A stretch of 64,000 nucleotides of DNA, taken from NCBI RefSeq assembly GCF_003574655.1, contig NZ_QNUM01000013.1, positions 1-64,000 on the forward strand. The letters are read 5' to 3'. The translations under genes were made by a program, and so were the position numbers. Of this stretch, positions 16,858 through 24,483 are shown in pieces. Numbering within the stretch: position 1 is the stretch's first letter; the number at the start of each line of letters is the position of its first letter. The notes under the pieces were generated by a model. The model made no database searches. It was not told the DNA's origin and saw only the letters and a list, made by a program, of their open reading frames with translations. The stretch comes from Cohaesibacter haloalkalitolerans. Its GTDB lineage: Bacteria; Pseudomonadota; Alphaproteobacteria; Rhizobiales; Cohaesibacteraceae.

Positions 16858-16974
16858 ATGTCAAATTGTGCGTTAGGCTATGATATCTGTGAGGACTATG
16901 GTTTAACGACGAGCATTGAGCCATTTTGATTGACGGCCGGTCGCAAAGGCGGGCCACTTGCGGGGAACTGGGAT

Positions 16975-17973
16975 ATGAAGCGAAAAGTTTTGGTGTGCGG
17001 TGGGGCTGGCTATATCGGGTCTCATATGGTTCAGGTTTTGCTGGAAGCTGGCCATGATGTCGTTGTTTTCGACAATTTGTCCTCCGGTCATGTGGAGGCC
17101 GTCAAGGGCGTGACGCTGGAGCGGGGCGATCTGCTGAACCCGGAGGATCTGGACGCGACCTTCAAGAAGCACAAGGTGGATGCGGTCATTCACTTTGCGG
17201 CGCTGATCTCCGTCGGGGAATCGGTCGAACTGCCGGATCTCTACTATCGCAACAATGTGACGGGCACGCTCAATCTGCTTGACGCCATGCGCAAGGCGGG
17301 GGTTGATCGGATCGTCTTTTCCTCCACGGCTGCCGTGTTCGGCAATCCGCAGCATGCCCTGATCGATGAGGCCCACCCGCTGGGACCGATCAATCCCTAT
17401 GGCTGGTCCAAGCGCATGGTCGAGCAGATCCTCTCCGACATGGCAGTGGCCTATGGTCTGCGCTCGGTTGCCTTGCGCTATTTCAATGCGGCAGGGGCGC
17501 ATCCGAACGGGTTGATCGGCGAGGCGCACAGCCCCGAGACCCATCTGGTGCCGCTGGTGCTGCTGACGGCGCTTGGCATTCGCGAAAAGCTGTCGGTGTT
17601 TGGCAGCGACTATGAAACCCGCGACGGCACCTGCATCCGCGATTATATCCATGTGCTCGATCTTGCCTCGGCGCATCTGCTGGCGCTTGATTACATGGAC
17701 AGTCACGAGGGGGCCCATCGCTTCAATCTGGGTAACGGCAATGGCTTTACCAACCTTGAGGTCATCAAGACCGCCAAGCGGCTGACCAATCGCGACATTC
17801 CTTATGAAATGGCGCCGCGGCGGGCGGGTGACTCGGCCTCTCTGGTGGCCGACAGCAGTCTGGCCAAATCGGAACTGGGCTGGAAGCCGAAGTTTGATGC
17901 GCTTGAAACCATCATCGAAACCGCATGGCGCTGGCATCACGATCCCAAATATGGACCCTTTGCAGGAAAATGA
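16975..17973 (+). CDS. galE: UDP-glucose 4-epimerase
   Basis: A 332-residue extended short-chain dehydrogenase that interconverts UDP-galactose and UDP-glucose with bound [12 protein letters not shown] at residues 8-16 is the NAD motif; [19 protein letters not shown] and YGWSK (catalytic Tyr and Lys) follow; [10 protein letters not shown] and GDYETRDGT-like [18 protein letters not shown] are typical of GalE. Length is near E. coli GalE (338). The start at 16975 is chosen by homology; a frame open to 16930 adds nothing recognisable. galT follows 14 bases after the stop in one operon. Confidence 0.93.
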
Positions 17974-17987
17974 CGAGGAGCCTGTTC

Positions 17988-19031
17988 ATGGCTGAAGAAA
18001 CTGTTTCCACCGATGCACCGCATCGTCGCTATAATCCGCTGAAGGGCGAGTGGGTGCTTGTCTCTCCGCATCGGAACAAGCGTCCCTGGCAGGGGCAGCA
18101 GGAAAAGCTGGTCGTCGAGGAAAAGCCGCAGCACGATCCGGGCTGTTATCTCTGCGCGGGCAACACGCGCAACTCCGGCGCGACCAATCCCGACTACAAG
18201 GGGCCGTTCGTTTTCCCGAACGACTTCCCGGCGCTTCTGGAAGACACCCCGCATGGGGGAACCACCGGGGATCCCCTGTTCCGGGCCAATAATGTGCGTG
18301 GCACCGCGCGGGTGATGTGCTTTTCCGAGCGCCATGACCTGACCCTGCCGGAGCTTGACGTTTCTGACCTTCGCAAGGTGGTGGATACCTGGGCCGAGCA
18401 GATCACTGATCTCGGGGCGCGCTATGACTGGGTTGCGGTGTTCGAGAACAAGGGGGCGGTCATGGGCTGTTCCCAGCCCCATCCGCATGGCCAGATCTGG
18501 GCGTCGGACTTCCTGCCCAACGAAGTGGCGACAGAAGACGCCCATCAGGCGCGGTTTCTTGCCGAAACGGGCGAAGTTCTGCTGGTGCGTTATGCTGCTT
18601 CCGAAGCAGAGAAGCGCGAGCGGGTGGTTGTCGAGAATGACGAATGGATTGCCGTTGTGCCCTGGTGGGCGACATGGCCGTTCGAGACTCTGCTGATGCC
18701 GAAGCGCCATGTGCTGCGTCTGCCGGACCTCACTGACCCTGAGCGGAACGGCCTCGCCGATGCGCTCAAGCGGCTCTGTACCAAATATGACAATCTGTTT
18801 GAGACCGAATTTCCCTACACGATGGGCTGGCATGGTGCGCCAACCCGGGCAGGCTCATTCGATCACTGGCAGCTGCATGCGCATTTCTACCCACCGCTTC
18901 TGCGCTCGGCGACAGTGCGCAAATTCATGGTCGGCTATGAAATGCTCTCGGAAGCGCAGCGGGATCTGACGGCGGAAACAGCGGCGGAACGACTGCGGTC
19001 GCTGTCGGACATACACTACAAGGCGAAATAA
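17988..19031 (+). CDS. galT: Galactose-1-phosphate uridylyltransferase
   Basis: A 347-residue HIT-superfamily enzyme exchanging galactose 1-phosphate with UDP-glucose. The active-site [12 protein letters not shown] carries the uridylylated histidine, and the zinc-site segment CYLCAGNTR lies in the N-terminal half. The C-terminal [17 protein letters not shown] matches E. coli GalT. GAGGAG at 17974-17979 fixes the ATG at 17988. It lies between galE and galK with 14-base gaps on both sides, a compact Leloir operon in the order E-T-K. Confidence 0.94.
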
Positions 19032-19045
19032 CAGGGGAGGGGCGC

Positions 19046-20155
19046 ATGACAACAGACCATGAGACGGCTTCCGTCAAGGCGGCGTTTGAGAAACATTTCG
19101 GCGCGGCGCCTGATGTCGTTGCCTATTCGCCGGGGCGGGTGAACTTGCTGGGCGAACACACCGATTACAACGGCGGCTTTGTGCTGCCCATGGCCCTGAG
19201 GGGGCTCGGGGTTTCCATAGCCCTCGGCAAGGGTGACAAGCCCGGTGTCATCGAGGCTTATTCGGATACCTTCGACCAAACCGAGGTCCGAAAGATCACC
19301 GACAGCCGCGAAGGGCGCTGGTCCGACTATCTGCTGGGCTGCCTCAAGGCTGTGGCCGAGGCGGAAGTGGCTGCTACCGGGCTTCGGGTTGCGCTTGAAA
19401 CGACATTGCCGATGGGGGCGGGGCTTTCCAGCTCCGCAGCGCTGGAGGTGGTGTCCATCAAGGCGGCTCTGGCGCTTTATGGCCGGGAGATGAGTTCGGT
19501 TGATGTGGCCGTCAAGGCGCGGGCGGTCGAGAATGACTTTGTCGGCATGCCCTGTGGCATCATGGATCAGTTTGCCTCATCAGTAGGTGATCCGGGGGTG
19601 GCGATGTTTCTCAACACCCACACACTCGCCTATGAATTGGTGGAGACCTCGCCGGATTATGCCTTTGTCATCATCGCATCGGGTGTCAGCCATCAGCTGA
19701 CCGAGGGCGGTGAAGACGGCTATGCCACCCGCGTGGCCGAGTGTCAGGCCGCCTGCAAGGCGCTTTCCATCGACATGATCAGCGATCTCGGGGTGGACGA
19801 CCTGGGGCGCATCAAGGATCTGCCGTCGCCGCTTGACCGGAGGGTTCGCCATGTGGTGACGGACAACCAGCGGGTTCTTGATGGTGTGGTCGCCTTGCGT
19901 GATGGTGACATGGTACGCTTTGGCGAGCTGATGGTGGATAGCCACCGTTCGCAGAAGGAAGACTATCAGATCACGGTGGCTGAAACCGACGCTCTGGTTG
20001 AGGCCTGCCTCTCCTATGGTGCGCTCGGTGCACGCCAGACCGGCGGCGGCTGGGGTGGCTCCGTGGTGGCTCTGGTCGAGTCGGGGGCTGTAGAAGCCTT
20101 CAGCCAGCGGGTGCTTGCCGACTTTGCAAAGACCTCCATTCTGGCCGTGACATAA
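19046..20155 (+). CDS. galK: Galactokinase
   Basis: A 369-residue GHMP kinase that phosphorylates galactose at C1. It has the galactokinase signature PGRVNLLGEHTDYNGGF near residue 29, the ATP-binding LPMGAGLSSSAALEV, and the C-terminal GALGARQTGGGWGGSVVAL motif. GGGGAGGGG upstream of the ATG is a strong ribosome-binding site. It is the last gene of galETK and is closed by a terminator. Import could be through ChvE-MmsAB, which in other bacteria handles galactose. Confidence 0.94.
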   Translation: MTTDHETASVKAAFEKHFGAAPDVVAYSPGRVNLLGEHTDYNGGFVLPMALRGLGVSIALGKGDKPGVIEAYSDTFDQTEVRKITDSREGRWSDYLLGCLKAVAEAEVAATGLRVALETTLPMGAGLSSSAALEVVSIKAALALYGREMSSVDVAVKARAVENDFVGMPCGIMDQFASSVGDPGVAMFLNTHTLAYELVETSPDYAFVIIASGVSHQLTEGGEDGYATRVAECQAACKALSIDMISDLGVDDLGRIKDLPSPLDRRVRHVVTDNQRVLDGVVALRDGDMVRFGELMVDSHRSQKEDYQITVAETDALVEACLSYGALGARQTGGGWGGSVVALVESGAVEAFSQRVLADFAKTSILAVT

Positions 20156-20184
20156 GCACCGCAAGTCTTTCTCTTCAATCTCTG

Positions 20185-20215
20185 GGCATCCGGTGATCAT
20201 CACCGGGTGCCTTTT
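20185..20215 (+). terminator. Intrinsic terminator after galK
   Basis: GGCATCCGGTG (20185-20195) pairs with CACCGGGTGCC (20201-20211), 11 bp with one G-T pair and a 5-base loop, followed by TTTT. Confidence 0.85.
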
Positions 20216-20343
20216 GCATTTTCAGTCTATTAGCCTTCCGGACAAGGCGCATGGCCGTTCCCGCAGATCCGCTGAAATAGTTTTGAGGATAGGCAATCTG
20301 TCGGTTTGCTGATGGCTTGCGCCCATGGTTGTTCCGTGGAACT

Positions 20344-21879
20344 ATGCAGAACATGGCAGAGATTGATGATCCCCTTGTTGTTATTGCAAACCGTTCGCTT
20401 GAGTGCCTCGCCGGGCTTGATTGCGGCCGGTTGAAGCCCGTGCTGTCCGACCATACGGAGCTGGCTGATGCGGCTCTGCTGGACATGTTCCATCAGCCTC
20501 TGATCAGTTCGGGGCGCTTGTTGATCGGCACTGAGGGACGATTGCTGCTGCTGGACCGCAATGGCGCGCAGAAGGAGCAGAAAGGCCCTGTCGAGGGTGG
20601 GCCCGTCAGGGAGCTGCCCAAGGGGGATGTGCGCAAGGCGCTCAAGGATCTGTCTGATCTCAGGGCTCTGATGCCGCTCTGCCGCTTTCGCTTCCGCTCG
20701 GTCCAGATGGCTCTCACGGATGACGATGGCAAGATCCATCTCAAGGTCCGGTTTCTTGAAGTGCAGATGGTCGGTGGCGAGATTGGGCTGATTGCCTTTT
20801 TGCGTCCGGTGCGTGGCTATGACAGGGCGCTGGAGATGATGCGGGAGTCGCTTTATGCTCTTGGTGGCAATCATGATCTTGTCGGCTTCCTTTCCGGGCT
20901 GTGCCTGTCCTTCCCCGTCGGGGTGATCAAGCCCGCCATCGTGATCGGCGAGGAGGAAAGCGCCTTCGCCGTGGCGACCGACATCATGGCCGCCTATCTG
21001 CCTGCCGCGCGGGTAAACGAGAAGGGCATCGTCAACGATCTCGACACCGAATTCCTGCATGACTACCGGATCGCCCTGCGCAAGATCCGATCCGTGCTCA
21101 GCCTGTTCAAGGGGGTCTATTCCGATGAGGTGACTGCGGATCTCAAGCGGCGGTTTTCCCGGCTGATGGCCAAGACCGGAAAGTTGCGGGATCTTGATGT
21201 CTATCTTCTTGAAAAGCAGAAATTCTTCGATTTGATCCCGGCGCCGCTGCATGATGGACTTGAACAGATGTTCGCCTTGTTTCTGCGTGATCGGGAGGAG
21301 GCTGCCGTGCGGCTCGCAGACCACCTGATCAGCGATAGCTATCAGAAGGAAATGCAGGAGCTGTCCGACCTGTTGGCCACGCCCGAGCACTTGCAGAAGG
21401 GGCCAAGTGCCGAGCAGGGGGCGCATGACTATGCCTGCCATCTCATCTGGAAGCGTTACCGCAAGATCTGCAAGACGGCGGTCTCGATCAATGAGACCAG
21501 CAAGAACAACGATGTGCATGCGTTGCGCATTCATTGCAAGAAGCTGCGCTATCTGATGGAATTCTTCGCGCCACTGTTCCCCGATGAGGCCATCCGGTCG
21601 CTGATCAAGCCAATGAAGCGGCTTCAGGACAATCTGGGTCGGTTCAATGACTGCTCGGTGCAGATCGATGCGCTGTCCGGTTTTCTCTCCGGGCGCAAGT
21701 TTCGTGACAAGCCCTCCCAGATGAAGATTGCCCAGAGCGTGGGGGCGTTGATTGCCATTTTGCACCAGCGGCAGGCAGCCGAACGCATGCTCGTGGCCGA
21801 GAATTTTGCCCGCTTTGACAGCGAGGAAACGCAACAGACATTCAAGACTCTGTTCCAGTTGCGGGAGGAAAGTGAATGA
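20344..21879 (+). CDS. CHAD-domain protein with degenerate CYTH-like N-terminus
   Basis: A protein of about 511 residues. The C-terminal 300 residues are a CHAD domain: EFLHDYRIALRKIRSVLSLF and later HALRIHCKKLRYLMEFF, the paired HxxRxxxKKxR helices, are its hallmark. CHAD domains bind polyphosphate through such basic histidine/arginine helices. Residues about 95-190 resemble the second half of a CYTH domain (LRALMPLCRFRFRS, then a GKIHLKVRFLEV strand), but the catalytic ExExK start is absent. Start codons TTG 20317, ATG 20344 and ATG 20353 are possible; 20344 is best with GTGGA just upstream. Its stop overlaps the start of the ParA-like gene by 4 bases. Cytoplasmic; no signal or membrane segment. 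Confidence 0.8.
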   Translation: MQNMAEIDDPLVVIANRSLECLAGLDCGRLKPVLSDHTELADAALLDMFHQPLISSGRLLIGTEGRLLLLDRNGAQKEQKGPVEGGPVRELPKGDVRKALKDLSDLRALMPLCRFRFRSVQMALTDDDGKIHLKVRFLEVQMVGGEIGLIAFLRPVRGYDRALEMMRESLYALGGNHDLVGFLSGLCLSFPVGVIKPAIVIGEEESAFAVATDIMAAYLPAARVNEKGIVNDLDTEFLHDYRIALRKIRSVLSLFKGVYSDEVTADLKRRFSRLMAKTGKLRDLDVYLLEKQKFFDLIPAPLHDGLEQMFALFLRDREEAAVRLADHLISDSYQKEMQELSDLLATPEHLQKGPSAEQGAHDYACHLIWKRYRKICKTAVSINETSKNNDVHALRIHCKKLRYLMEFFAPLFPDEAIRSLIKPMKRLQDNLGRFNDCSVQIDALSGFLSGRKFRDKPSQMKIAQSVGALIAILHQRQAAERMLVAENFARFDSEETQQTFKTLFQLREESE

Positions 21880-22628
21880 AGATCATCGCCTGCTATTCCA
21901 ACAAGGGAGGCGTTGGCAAGACCGCAACTTCCGTCAATCTGGCCTATGCTCTGGCCGAGGCGGGCAAGCGGGTGCTGCTCTGTGATCTTGACCCGCAGGG
22001 GGCCTCGAGCTTCTATTTTCGGGTCAAGCCGTCCAGGAAGCTGACGGACGAGCAGTTTTTCAAGGATGAGGACCGCTTCGTCAAATCCATCCGTGGCAGC
22101 AATTATGATGATCTGGACATTCTGCCGGCCAATATGAGCTTTCGCAATTTCGATGTCTTCCTGTCTCGAATGAAGAACAGCCGGTCGCGCCTGAAAAAGT
22201 CGCTGAAGGCCGTCAAGAAGGACTATGACGTCATTCTGCTCGACTGCCCGCCGAATATTTCGACCCTGTCGGAGAGCGTGTTCAAGGCGTCCGATGTGGT
22301 GCTGGTGCCGGTCATTCCCACGACCCTGTCGCAGCGGACCTTCGAGCAACTGGTCGATTTCTTCAAGGCCAACGATATTCCGCTCAAGAAGCTGGCCGCC
22401 TTTTTCTCGATGGTCCAGAATGTCAAGTCGCTGCATGGCGAGTTGATGGATGAGATGACGAGCCAGTACAAGAAGCAGTTCCTTTCCGCCTATGTGCCCT
22501 TCACGTCCGATGTCGAGCGCATGGGCGTGCATCGGGCGCCGGTGCTGGCCAGCGCGCCGGGCTGTGCCGCTTCCAAGGCCTATCAGGATCTCTATCGCGA
22601 GATGCGCAAGAAGGTGGCCCTGAAATGA
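21876..22628 (+). CDS. ParA/MinD-like partitioning ATPase
   Basis: A 250-residue P-loop ATPase with the deviant Walker A motif KGGVGKTATS (signature Lys10, Lys15), LLCDLDPQG Walker A' and VILLDCPPNI Walker B. This is the ParA/Soj family that forms ATP-dependent dimers on DNA and moves cargo such as plasmids, chemoreceptor arrays or carboxysomes. No ParB gene is nearby. It overlaps the CHAD gene by 4 bases (ATGA) and the following CYTH gene by 4 bases, so the three are translated as a coupled unit. The link suggests positioning of a polyphosphate-related cargo, which is an inference. A chromosomal parA is unlikely given the neighbours. Confidence 0.85.
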   Translation: MKIIACYSNKGGVGKTATSVNLAYALAEAGKRVLLCDLDPQGASSFYFRVKPSRKLTDEQFFKDEDRFVKSIRGSNYDDLDILPANMSFRNFDVFLSRMKNSRSRLKKSLKAVKKDYDVILLDCPPNISTLSESVFKASDVVLVPVIPTTLSQRTFEQLVDFFKANDIPLKKLAAFFSMVQNVKSLHGELMDEMTSQYKKQFLSAYVPFTSDVERMGVHRAPVLASAPGCAASKAYQDLYREMRKKVALK

Positions 22629-23125
22629 GCGTTGCCGAGCCGAAGACGGAAAGCGTTGAAATCGAACGCAAGTTCCTGTTGCGCGCCCTGCCGGATCTGG
22701 CTCCCCTCAAAGCCGGGGATGTCGCGCAGGGCTATCTGACTTCCGCCACGGATTCCGTTGAAATGCGGGTGCGCCGGAAGGGCTGTGGTGCGGACGCTGC
22801 CCATTTCATGACGTTGAAGTCCGATGGCAGCCTGTCGCGCAAGGAAATCGAGGTGCCGATTTCTGCGGCCCAGTTCAACAGCTTCTGGCCCGCAACCAAG
22901 GGCCGCCGGGTCGAGAAGACGCGCTATGTGGGGACTCTTTCGGACGGTCTCCGTTTCGAGCTTGATATATTCCATGGTGGTCTGGACGGATTGAAATTGG
23001 TCGAGGTGGAATTTGCCTCGGTCGAGGCGGCGTCGCGGTTTGTTGCGCCGGACTGGTTCGGCGAGGACGTGACCGGCAACAAGGGCTACAAGAACAAGTC
23101 TCTAGCGGTGAATGGATTGCCCTGA
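22625..23125 (+). CDS. CYTH-domain triphosphatase-like protein
   Basis: A 166-residue stand-alone CYTH (triphosphate tunnel) protein. The ExExK motif is intact at Glu12, Glu14, Lys16 (EIERKFLL). Tunnel residues follow: MRVRRKG, FMTLKSDG, RKEIEVPI, RVEKTRYVG, FELDIFHGG and KLVEVEF, and the family-typical GNKGYKNKSLA end. Bacterial single-domain members such as the Clostridium thermocellum enzyme hydrolyse inorganic triphosphate and other organophosphates; some relatives make cAMP or thiamine triphosphate products. The ATG overlaps the ParA-like stop by 4 bases. It supplies the catalytic motif that the upstream CHAD protein lacks. Confidence 0.87.
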   Translation: MSVAEPKTESVEIERKFLLRALPDLAPLKAGDVAQGYLTSATDSVEMRVRRKGCGADAAHFMTLKSDGSLSRKEIEVPISAAQFNSFWPATKGRRVEKTRYVGTLSDGLRFELDIFHGGLDGLKLVEVEFASVEAASRFVAPDWFGEDVTGNKGYKNKSLAVNGLP

Positions 23126-23307
23126 TCCGGTTTGCTGCGCGGGGTCTTCTGTTGTTTGCGGGTGCCTCGGGTGAGGGAAGCTGCGAGATGGGAAGCGGTT
23201 GCTTCCGGCAAGGAAGGCGGATTTGATATGCCTGTCAAACCCGCCTCATTCACGCTGTATCGTGCCTTATGGCACGGCTGTCATGTGTCCTGATCCCGGG
23301 AGACCCC

Positions 23308-24483
23308 TTACGGGCGTTCGACACAGAGGGCAACGCCCATGCCGCCGCCGATGCAGAGGGTGGCAAGGCCCTTTTTGGCGTTGCGGCGTTTCATTTCGAA
23401 CAGCAGGGTGTTGAGGATGCGGCAGCCGGAAGCGCCGATCGGATGGCCGATGGCGATGGCTCCGCCGTTGACGTTGACAATCTCCGGGTCCCAGCCCATT
23501 TCCGAGTTCACGGCGCAGGCCTGGGCGGCGAAGGCTTCGTTGGCTTCAACCAGATCGAGATCGTCCGCTTTCCAGCCAGCCTTTTCAAGAGCCAGACGGG
23601 ACGCATAGACCGGCCCCATGCCCATGACTTTCGGGTCAAGACCGACTGTTGCGTAGGAAACGATGCGGGCAAGCGGTTCAATGCCGCGTTTTTCGGCGTC
23701 TTCCGCGGTCATGCACAGGGTTACGGCTGCGCCGTCGTTGATGCCCGATGCGTTGCCTGCGGTGACGGTGCCGTCCTTGATGAAGGCCGGGCGCAGTTTC
23801 TGCAGGGTTTCGATCGTGGTGCCCGGGCGGATGAACTCGTCCTTGTCAACGATGCTGTCGCCCTTGCGGCTTTTGACTGTGAAAGGCACGATCTCGTCCA
23901 CAAAGCGACCGGCATTCTGGGCCTCTTCCGCCTTGTTCTGGGATCGCAGGGCCAGAGCGTCCTGCATCTCACGGGTGATTTGCCATTGTTCGGCAACATT
24001 TTCAGCGGTTTGTCCCATGTGATAGCCATTGAATGCCTCCCACAGACCATCGCGGATCATGGTGTCGATCATTTTCAGATCACCCATTTTCTGGCCCTGA
24101 CGAATATAGGCGATATGGGGTGCCTGTGACATGCTTTCCTGCCCGCCAGCAGCGACAATTTTTGCATCGCCTAACATGATATGCTGCGCTGCAAGGGCGA
24201 CCGCACGCAAGCCCGACCCGCACACCTGGTTGATGCCCCATGCGGCGCTCTCGAGCGGGAAGCCTGCGTTGATGTGAGCCTGACGGGCAGGGTTCTGGCC
24301 CTGACCCGCATTGAGCACCTGGCCCAGAATGGTTTCCGATACTTCGGCCGGATCAATGCCCGCGCGGTCCACAACAGCCTTCAATACAGCTGCACCCAGA
24401 TCATGGGCGGGAACATTGGTAAAAGAACCTAAAAAACTACCCACAGCGGTACGTGCTGCGGACGCAATTACGACATTGGTCAT
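23308..24483 (-). CDS. Acetyl-CoA C-acetyltransferase (thiolase)
   Basis: A 391-residue biosynthetic-type thiolase that condenses two acetyl-CoA to acetoacetyl-CoA, the first step of polyhydroxybutyrate or ketone-body metabolism. The nucleophile Cys88 is in VCGSGLRA, His347 is in GHPIGASG and Cys377 is in LCIGGGMG, all intact. Length matches PhaA/AtoB. It stands alone: no phaB, phaC or CoA-transferase lies next to it, so PhaA and AtoB cannot be told apart. The downstream neighbour on the same strand upstream is an IclR regulator separated by that gene's terminator. Confidence 0.92.

What the first reader, a model, noticed from the sequence alone, without database searches (positions are those of the whole stretch)
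20344..23125. CHAD - ParA-like ATPase - CYTH operon: a possible polyphosphate-body positioning and turnover system
Three genes overlap by 4 bases at each junction: a CHAD-domain protein (polyphosphate-binding fold), a ParA/MinD-type ATPase with the signature lysine and no ParB partner, and an intact CYTH triphosphatase. CHAD proteins are known to associate with polyphosphate granules, CYTH enzymes hydrolyse short polyphosphates, and orphan ParA proteins place cargoes such as carboxysomes. The strict coupling suggests a single machine in which CHAD tethers polyphosphate, ParA spaces it over the nucleoid and CYTH trims or signals. I am not aware of a described system of this composition.
Basis: partly seen in the sequence, partly recalled or inferred. 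Interest (0 to 1): 0.82.

Follow-up and report, generated by a model that had tools for sequence, protein, structure and literature searches.

The report
Polyphosphate-granule ParA–CHAD operon
Three overlapping bacterial genes encode a polyphosphate-binding type of protein, a cargo-moving type of ATPase and a cutter of short polyphosphate, and relatives in distant bacteria suggest they belong to an undescribed machine that places and shares out the cell's phosphate-storage granules.

Summary
Confirmed: three 4-bp-overlapped genes encode CHAD, ParA and CYTH proteins. The conserved core is a pair, not a trio: in 80 relatives of the ParA, CHAD lies directly upstream in 78 (several phyla); CYTH follows in 40. 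(1) The CHAD protein has an N-terminal TTM-fold domain without the catalytic strand motif. (2) The CYTH is a close relative of the N. europaea specific tripolyphosphatase. (3) In 32 of 80 loci a small lysine-tailed ribbon-helix-helix (RHH) gene precedes CHAD, a candidate ParA partner; it was not found in this genome. (4) Some loci add a Ddp1-like NUDIX or PPK1; two Paracoccus plasmids read RHH-CHAD-ParA-CYTH-NUDIX. A second, distant ParA subfamily also sits beside TTM-CHAD, once beside PPK1. A polyP link is very likely; positioning or inheritance of polyP granules is the best mechanism (about 0.55) but inferred. Against it: no cell data, no partner found here, PPK1 not enriched, and the pair is rare (7 of 398 phylum genomes). 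Two papers show ppk-parA-CHAD adjacency in Acidithiobacillus, without a positioning role in the passages read.

The parts
20185..20211 (+). hairpin with T-rich tail after galK (gene name by inspection): likely terminator separating the upstream genes from the CHAD-ParA-CYTH unit
   Evidence: terminator scan and inverted repeat; 1 such site found against 3.2 expected in shuffles of 20000-23400, so the call rests on its position
20344..21879 (+). CHAD protein, 511 aa: N-terminal TTM/CYTH-fold domain without the ExExK strand (about 10-180) and CHAD domain (214-444)
   Evidence: Pfam 4.7e-58; AlphaFold2 pLDDT 91.7; Foldseek to CtCHAD with polyP 6qva 1.2e-16, ygiF 5a60 6.5e-8, human THTPA 3bhd 1e-4 (aligned ranges not given there, so the N-terminal assignment rests on THTPA being a TTM protein without CHAD); conservation
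21876..22628 (+). ParA-family ATPase, 250 aa
   Evidence: Pfam AAA_31 2e-42; key Walker residues invariant in 22 sequences; no shared C-terminal extension; K184, R/K215, R220 conserved
22625..23125 (+). CYTH/TTM protein, 166 aa, close relative of the inorganic triphosphatase NeuTTM
   Evidence: PDB 2fbl/3typ 3.5e-49; E12, E14, K16 and further charged residues invariant in 15 sequences
23215..23246 (.). inverted repeat between CYTH and the convergent gene at 23308 (thiolase by inspection), possible terminator
   Evidence: 12-nt arms, 92% complementary; not scored as a terminator

Best explanation
It is a polyphosphate-granule positioning and inheritance module of the ParA (McdA-like) kind. The TTM/CHAD protein coats or nucleates the polyP granule and is the cargo adaptor; the ParA ATPase dimerises on ATP, binds the nucleoid without sequence specificity and is released where the granule-bound partner stimulates it, so granules chase ParA gradients, stay apart and are shared between daughters; the NeuTTM-type CYTH removes tripolyphosphate end-products, and in relatives a Ddp1-like NUDIX cuts the chain and an RHH protein with a lysine-rich tail supplies ParA stimulation and/or represses the operon. 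Shown here: gene content, domain identities, intact ATPase and triphosphatase motifs, loss of the ExExK strand in the N-terminal TTM domain, and conservation and joint transfer of the CHAD-ParA pair. Inferred: polyP binding by this CHAD (from family structures), nucleoid binding, and positioning itself. In this genome no RHH of this kind was found, so CHAD, CYTH or an unknown protein would have to stimulate ParA.
For: CHAD directly upstream of ParA in 78 of 80 relatives, with tight spacing in 77 of 79 pairs while other flanks change. Quick ParA tree of 62 rows (window, 29 of the 80 loci, 6 further CHAD-linked and 26 of 53 unlinked loci): the core CHAD-linked clade has support 99; Alcaligenaceae nest inside an alphaproteobacterial set (99) and Pontiella (Kiritimatiellota) groups with Thermodesulfobacteriota (95), so the pair seems to move as a unit; 6 of 6 Paracoccus plasmids with this ParA have CHAD beside it. 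Extra genes are of polyP-enzyme families: NeuTTM-like CYTH in 40 of 80, NUDIX within 1.5 kb downstream in 6 of 80, divergent PPK1 in 8 of 80; the NUDIX of a Paracoccus operon has Ddp1 as best PDB match. A distant ParA subfamily is also followed directly by TTM-CHAD: the seed L248, found by that adjacency, and 2 of 20 relatives fetched, one with PPK1 upstream. RHH with a lysine-rich, low-confidence (probably disordered) tail in 32 of 80, like the positively charged disordered N-terminus of ParA/MinD partners described in PMC10241942 (passages). Of 50 genomes that I chose from the 80, 41 have PPK1 and the other 9 have PPK2. L080 lacks CHAD and its ParA is broken.
Against: No localisation, deletion or binding data. 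PPK1 is hardly commoner in these genomes (41 of 50) than in the phylum sample (305 of 398). The RHH was not found in the window genome; of 25 genomes searched that lack a strong RHH at the locus, 21 had no match and 4 only weak ones, while all 6 with the RHH at the locus rang. CYTH is absent in half the loci, and 30 of 80 have no CYTH, downstream NUDIX or PPK1 counted, some of them cut by contig ends. The pair is in 7 of 398 genomes although CHAD is in 202, so elsewhere CHAD does without it. The CHAD protein has no basic disordered tail (N-terminus MQNMAEIDD). L067 keeps an open ParA without CHAD. Frame breaks in ParA also occur with CHAD present (L081, L299) and in CHAD with ParA present (L077), so the broken ParA of L080 is weak evidence.
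Confidence: 0.55

Rival explanations
1. A polyP-turnover control switch, not a positioning machine: ParA with CHAD (and RHH where present) gates enzyme access or transcription in response to ATP and polyP, as ParA/RHH pairs autoregulate plasmid partition operons (recalled).
For: The RHH matches Arc-like repressors (1.8e-9) and RHH_1; enzymes are co-encoded in many loci; the operon exists without RHH in many lineages.
Against: [quoted passage not shown] a pure regulator would not need to be tied to CHAD more tightly than to the enzymes.
Confidence: 0.2
2. Static tethering: ParA merely glues the CHAD-coated granule to the nucleoid, like AlgP or PhaM, with no dynamic gradients.
For: polyP granules in P. 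aeruginosa are spaced with the help of the DNA-binding AlgP (PMC13052382 section 6); no partner was found in this genome.
Against: K10, K15, D39 and D123 of the ATPase motifs are invariant, which a passive glue does not obviously need.
Confidence: 0.13
3. A DNA (plasmid or chromosome) partition system that borrowed CHAD as its ParB.
For: ParA homology, including phrog_164 'ParA-like partition protein' 4.4e-55; the pair occurs on 6 Paracoccus plasmids; the RHH resembles ParG weakly (3 of 14 members, best 0.014).
Against: The genome has two other clear ParA-type hits (C1, C11) and two weak ones on C20; no parS-like site in the window; RHH not found here; associated genes are of polyP-enzyme families.
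Confidence: 0.05
4. Chance or regional operon without joint function.
For: CYTH is absent in half the loci; the pair is rare in the phylum.
Against: 78 of 80 adjacency across phyla, apparent transfer as a unit, a second ParA subfamily beside TTM-CHAD.
Confidence: 0.02

Closest known systems
McdAB carboxysome positioning (ParA/MinD-type cargo positioning)
   Same: ParA-family ATPase encoded beside its cargo genes; expected to ride on the nucleoid
   Different: cargo would be polyP, adaptor a TTM/CHAD protein, candidate partner an RHH protein; P0002 matches the McdA chain 6noo at only 3.8e-9
CHAD phosins (CtCHAD 6qva; R. eutropha CHAD proteins, known to me from other papers' text)
   Same: CHAD fold and invariant basic residues; CtCHAD was crystallised with polyP
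   Different: joined to a TTM-fold domain without ExExK and tied to a ParA gene
ppk-parA-CHAD cluster of Acidithiobacillus (PMC6416229, PMC10892726)
   Same: ParA gene beside a CYTH-CHAD gene, with ppk
   Different: The passages read give ParA no polyP role
NeuTTM (NE1496) specific inorganic triphosphatase
   Same: the window CYTH aligns over residues 11-163, E 3.5e-49
   Different: not described with ParA or CHAD in the passages read
AlgP polyP granule spacing in P. aeruginosa
   Same: spacing of polyP granules through DNA binding (as reviewed)
   Different: histone-like protein, no ATPase

Membership tests
ParA/MinD (A/D) positioning ATPase | deviant Walker A with signature lysine, Walker A'/B intact | tested here: met
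   KGGVGKT, DLDPQG, LDCPP; K10, K15, D39, D123 invariant in 22 sequences
ParA/MinD (A/D) positioning ATPase | nucleoid-type basic C-terminal surface rather than membrane-targeting helix | tested here: inconclusive
   no shared C-terminal extension; conserved K184, R/K215, R220; DNA binding not testable
ParA/MinD (A/D) positioning ATPase | partner protein with basic disordered N-terminus | tested here: inconclusive
   RHH profile found nothing in the window genome (the same profile rang in all 6 genomes with the RHH at the locus); other partners not searched for; candidate RHH in 32 of 80 relatives
ParA/MinD (A/D) positioning ATPase | cargo genes encoded alongside and conserved | tested here: met
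   CHAD in 78 of 80; that polyP is the cargo is inferred
ParA/MinD (A/D) positioning ATPase | positions or segregates a cargo in cells | not testable with these tools
   needs microscopy
CHAD phosin | CHAD fold with conserved His/Arg/Lys | tested here: met
CHAD phosin | binds polyP / sits on granules | not testable with these tools
   inferred from 6qva and literature
TTM triphosphatase: N-terminal domain of the CHAD protein | ExExK on strand 1 | tested here: not met
   strand 1 reads LVVIA; no conserved acidic column in residues 8-20 of 33 sequences
TTM triphosphatase: separate CYTH gene | ExExK and further charged residues | tested here: met
ParABS | parS site near the genes | tested here: not met
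   0 matches with up to 3 mismatches in the window to a recalled consensus
ParABS | ParB gene beside parA | tested here: not met
   neighbours are CHAD and CYTH; no ParB profile search of the whole window was run
McdAB | McdB partner and carboxysome genes | not tested
   no McdB model was searched; neighbouring genes look like gal genes and a thiolase (by inspection)

The most novel reading that the evidence does not exclude
A dedicated, horizontally spread polyphosphate-granule partition operon (RHH - TTM/CHAD without TTM catalysis - ParA - tripolyphosphatase - Ddp1-like NUDIX), in which a TTM/CHAD protein serves as cargo adaptor for a ParA ATPase, and whose CHAD-ParA link apparently arose at least twice with distinct ParA subfamilies: the first active positioning machinery for polyP granules.
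Probability: 0.5. Interest if true: 0.85.

Novelty: new variant of a known kind. Interest (0 to 1): 0.72.

Why it matters
A 2025 review (PMC13052382; section 6 read; further passages) says that the proteins positioning polyP granules in C. crescentus are unidentified and that it is open whether energy is spent on granule localisation. This operon names testable candidates (a ParA, its adaptor and a possible partner) in named genera such as Ruegeria, Paracoccus and Cohaesibacter, and would extend ParA-type positioning from DNA and protein complexes to an inorganic polymer store.

Tried and rejected
Strict trio: rejected; CYTH follows ParA in 40 of 80. PPK1 enrichment as support: tried and not found, 41 of 50 against 305 of 398. 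Wider ParA family as the same system: rejected; of 59 genomes of 398 with a ParA profile match at 1e-60, 7 (the window's included) have CHAD adjacent; in the other 52 no CHAD was found in the flanks fetched, up to about 5 kb and some cut by contig ends (59 places from 58 genomes were fetched). RHH elsewhere in genomes that lack it at the locus: 31 genomes searched, 6 of them positive by the locus; of the other 25, 21 had no match at 0.01 and 4 had weak ones (1.1e-6 to 0.005), one being the remnant in L043's genome. Broken-looking RHH remnants lie upstream of CHAD in L022, L043 and L046 (0.00075, 8.8e-8, 0.0093). Defence or phage origin: PADLOC gave only P-loop stretch matches for ParA; PHROGs has matches for ParA (phrog_164, 4.4e-55) and CYTH (phrog_6660, 4.5e-24), and two phage records have ParA matches of 27-31% identity; not pursued, as no CHAD matched in PHROGs. 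A sigma-70 promoter scan found none (0.7 expected). 100 CHAD neighbourhoods picked from the listed, better-scoring rows (not random; known pairs and an edge row left out; flanks about 3.5 kb) gave 1 adjacent ParA of another subfamily (L248), 3 PPK1, 1 NeuTTM-like CYTH and 1 NUDIX; a second ParA-profile hit, L267, lies about 2 kb from CHAD and looks Mrp/ApbC-like by inspection. Three plasmid ParA hits of 36-42% (Halomonas, Pontibacter, Marinobacter) and three non-Paracoccus plasmid CHAD hits had no partner hit at 1e-30.
Full report
What is there. Three genes on the + strand overlap by ATGA at both junctions: 20344-21879, 21876-22628 and 22625-23125. They begin 188 bp after a gene that looks like galK, behind a hairpin with a T-rich tail (20185-20211), and end 182 bp before a convergent gene that looks like a thiolase, with an inverted repeat in that gap; these two gene names are by inspection. 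The genome is close to Cohaesibacter: the best ParA relative, 86% identical, is from C. marisflavi, with the same four genes upstream of the operon. The genus is my inference.

The proteins. The first has a CHAD domain (214-444, 4.7e-58). Its AlphaFold2 model (pLDDT 91.7) matches CtCHAD crystallised with polyP (6qva, 1.2e-16), E. coli ygiF, a TTM-CHAD protein (5a60, 6.5e-8), and human thiamine triphosphatase, a TTM protein without CHAD (3bhd, 1e-4). The listing gives no aligned ranges; I take the TTM match to be the N-terminal half, which is the part rich in strands. That half lacks ExExK: no acidic column is conserved in residues 8-20 of 33 sequences, while twelve His/Arg/Lys columns of the CHAD domain are fully conserved. 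The second protein is a ParA whose K10, K15, D39 and D123 are invariant in 22 sequences, with no shared tail after the last helix and conserved basic residues late in the chain. The third is weak in Pfam (0.0035) but matches NeuTTM (2fbl, 3.5e-49) and keeps E12, E14, K16 and further charged residues in 15 sequences; NeuTTM is reported to hydrolyse tripolyphosphate with high specificity (PMC3440374, start of abstract and passages).

Conservation. A scan of genome contigs with the ParA gave 80 loci (84 confirmed, best 80 kept), placed by record title in Alpha-, Beta- and Gammaproteobacteria, Thermodesulfobacteriota and Kiritimatiellota, with one title mapping to Myxococcota and two unplaced. CHAD is directly upstream in 78 of 80; spacing is -29 to +27 in 77 of 79 pairs, the window included, 43 of them -4. 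CYTH follows in 40 of 80. Apart from these and the RHH, no family recurs in more than 11 of the 81 loci clustered. The exceptions are L067 (an open ParA, no CHAD found) and L080 (no CHAD found, ParA frame broken). Frame breaks also occur in ParA of L081 and L299 and in CHAD of L077, where the partner is present, so I do not lean on L080.

In 32 of 80 loci an RHH gene of about 60 codons sits just before CHAD (14 aligned); four loci are cut by the contig end there. The model of one shows two helices and a low-confidence lysine-rich N-terminus, probably disordered. PMC10241942 (passages) says ParA/MinD partners act, or are suggested to act, through a positively charged disordered N-terminus, so this is a candidate partner; it also matches Arc-like repressors, so autoregulation is as possible. 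It was not found in the window genome; the same profile rang in all 6 genomes searched that have it at the locus, and among 25 that do not, 21 had no match and 4 weak ones. Ruegeria and Phaeobacter loci L022, L043 and L046 show what look like decayed remnants, and L041 has another RHH-like gene, below Pfam's cut-off, at that place. So the RHH is not essential to the module.

PolyP enzymes. A NUDIX gene lies within 1.5 kb downstream in 6 of 80 and PPK1 lies divergently upstream in 8 of 80; with CYTH, 50 of 80 loci have at least one such gene and 30 have none in these places, some cut by contig ends. Two Paracoccus plasmid records read RHH - CHAD - ParA - CYTH - NUDIX, one with a second CYTH and one with ParA annotated in two pieces. 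The NUDIX of the first has yeast Ddp1 as best PDB match (2.8e-9); Ddp1 is described as having pyrophosphatase activity on polyphosphates (PMC8064635, start of abstract and outline). Of nine plasmids with this ParA at 1e-30, the six from Paracoccus (64% identity or more) have CHAD beside it; the other three (36-42%) had no CHAD hit.

History. In a quick tree of 62 ParA rows (SH-aLRT support only) the core CHAD-linked clade has support 99 (31 CHAD-linked rows and L067); three Alcaligenaceae rows lie inside an alphaproteobacterial set (99), and Pontiella groups with Thermodesulfobacteriota rows and one MAG titled Proteobacteria (95), so the pair seems to have moved between groups as a unit. Four deeper CHAD-linked ParAs (L121, L122, L128, L131) fall outside that clade, so one origin of the CHAD link is not shown. 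In a second, distant ParA subfamily (215 aa) the gene is followed directly by TTM-CHAD in the seed L248, which was found by that adjacency, and in 2 of the 20 close relatives fetched (L278, L292), once with PPK1 upstream; L248 has a histidine phosphatase gene before its ParA. Two papers describe ppk, parA and CHAD or CYTH-CHAD genes together in Acidithiobacillus (PMC10892726, section 15 and passages; PMC6416229, passages); the passages read give ParA no granule role.

Rarity and base rates. In a phylum sample of 398 genomes CHAD occurs in 202, ParA by profile at 1e-60 in 59, and the adjacent pair in 7 with the window's; one of these (L119) appears to be the contig of L041. Of 100 further CHAD neighbourhoods, picked from the listed better-scoring rows, 1 had an adjacent ParA. 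PPK1 is in 41 of 50 genomes that I chose from the 80, against 305 of 398 in the phylum; the 9 without PPK1 all have PPK2. A polyP kinase gene is thus present in all 50 but PPK1 is not a distinguishing mark.

Mechanism. Best reading (0.55): CHAD marks the granule, ParA moves or spaces it on the nucleoid, and CYTH/NUDIX clear the products. Shown: content, motifs, conservation, apparent co-transfer. Inferred: polyP binding by this CHAD, nucleoid binding, ATPase stimulation, positioning. The weakest link is the partner not found in this genome; CHAD has no basic tail, so either CHAD stimulates ParA through another surface, or an unknown protein does, or this lineage uses static tethering. Rivals are a turnover or expression switch (0.2), static tethering (0.13), DNA partition (0.05) and chance (0.02).

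Novelty. Searches of the held library (listings, and passages of the papers named here) showed me no ParA-type positioning system for polyP granules; the 2025 review PMC13052382 (section 6) names AlgP and says the proteins at work in C. crescentus are unidentified. The library lacks most subscription papers; Iyer and Aravind 2002 and Tumlirsch and Jendrossek 2017 were not held, so an earlier remark on ParA neighbours is not excluded. I rate it a new variant of a known kind.

Noticed in passing
Possibly another cargo ATPase.
   Followed up: no
window 16930-20155: Genes that look like galE, galT and galK run directly upstream of the operon in the same direction; the same families in the same order occur in C. 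marisflavi (L003).
   Followed up: partly
L248, L278, L292: A second ParA subfamily directly followed by TTM-CHAD, with a histidine phosphatase (L248, and a weaker match in L278) or PPK1 (L292) nearby.
   Followed up: partly
L022, L043, L046 upstream of CHAD: Decayed-looking remnants of the RHH gene.
   Followed up: no
G000:C18:308924-309229 (L002): A second, weaker CHAD match in the window's genome (30.8 bits); PPK1 lies on the same contig at 376826, about 68 kb away.
   Followed up: no
L041:3994-4344: An RHH-like gene of another family (RHH_9, 0.0019, below cut-off) upstream of CHAD where the usual RHH would stand.
   Followed up: partly
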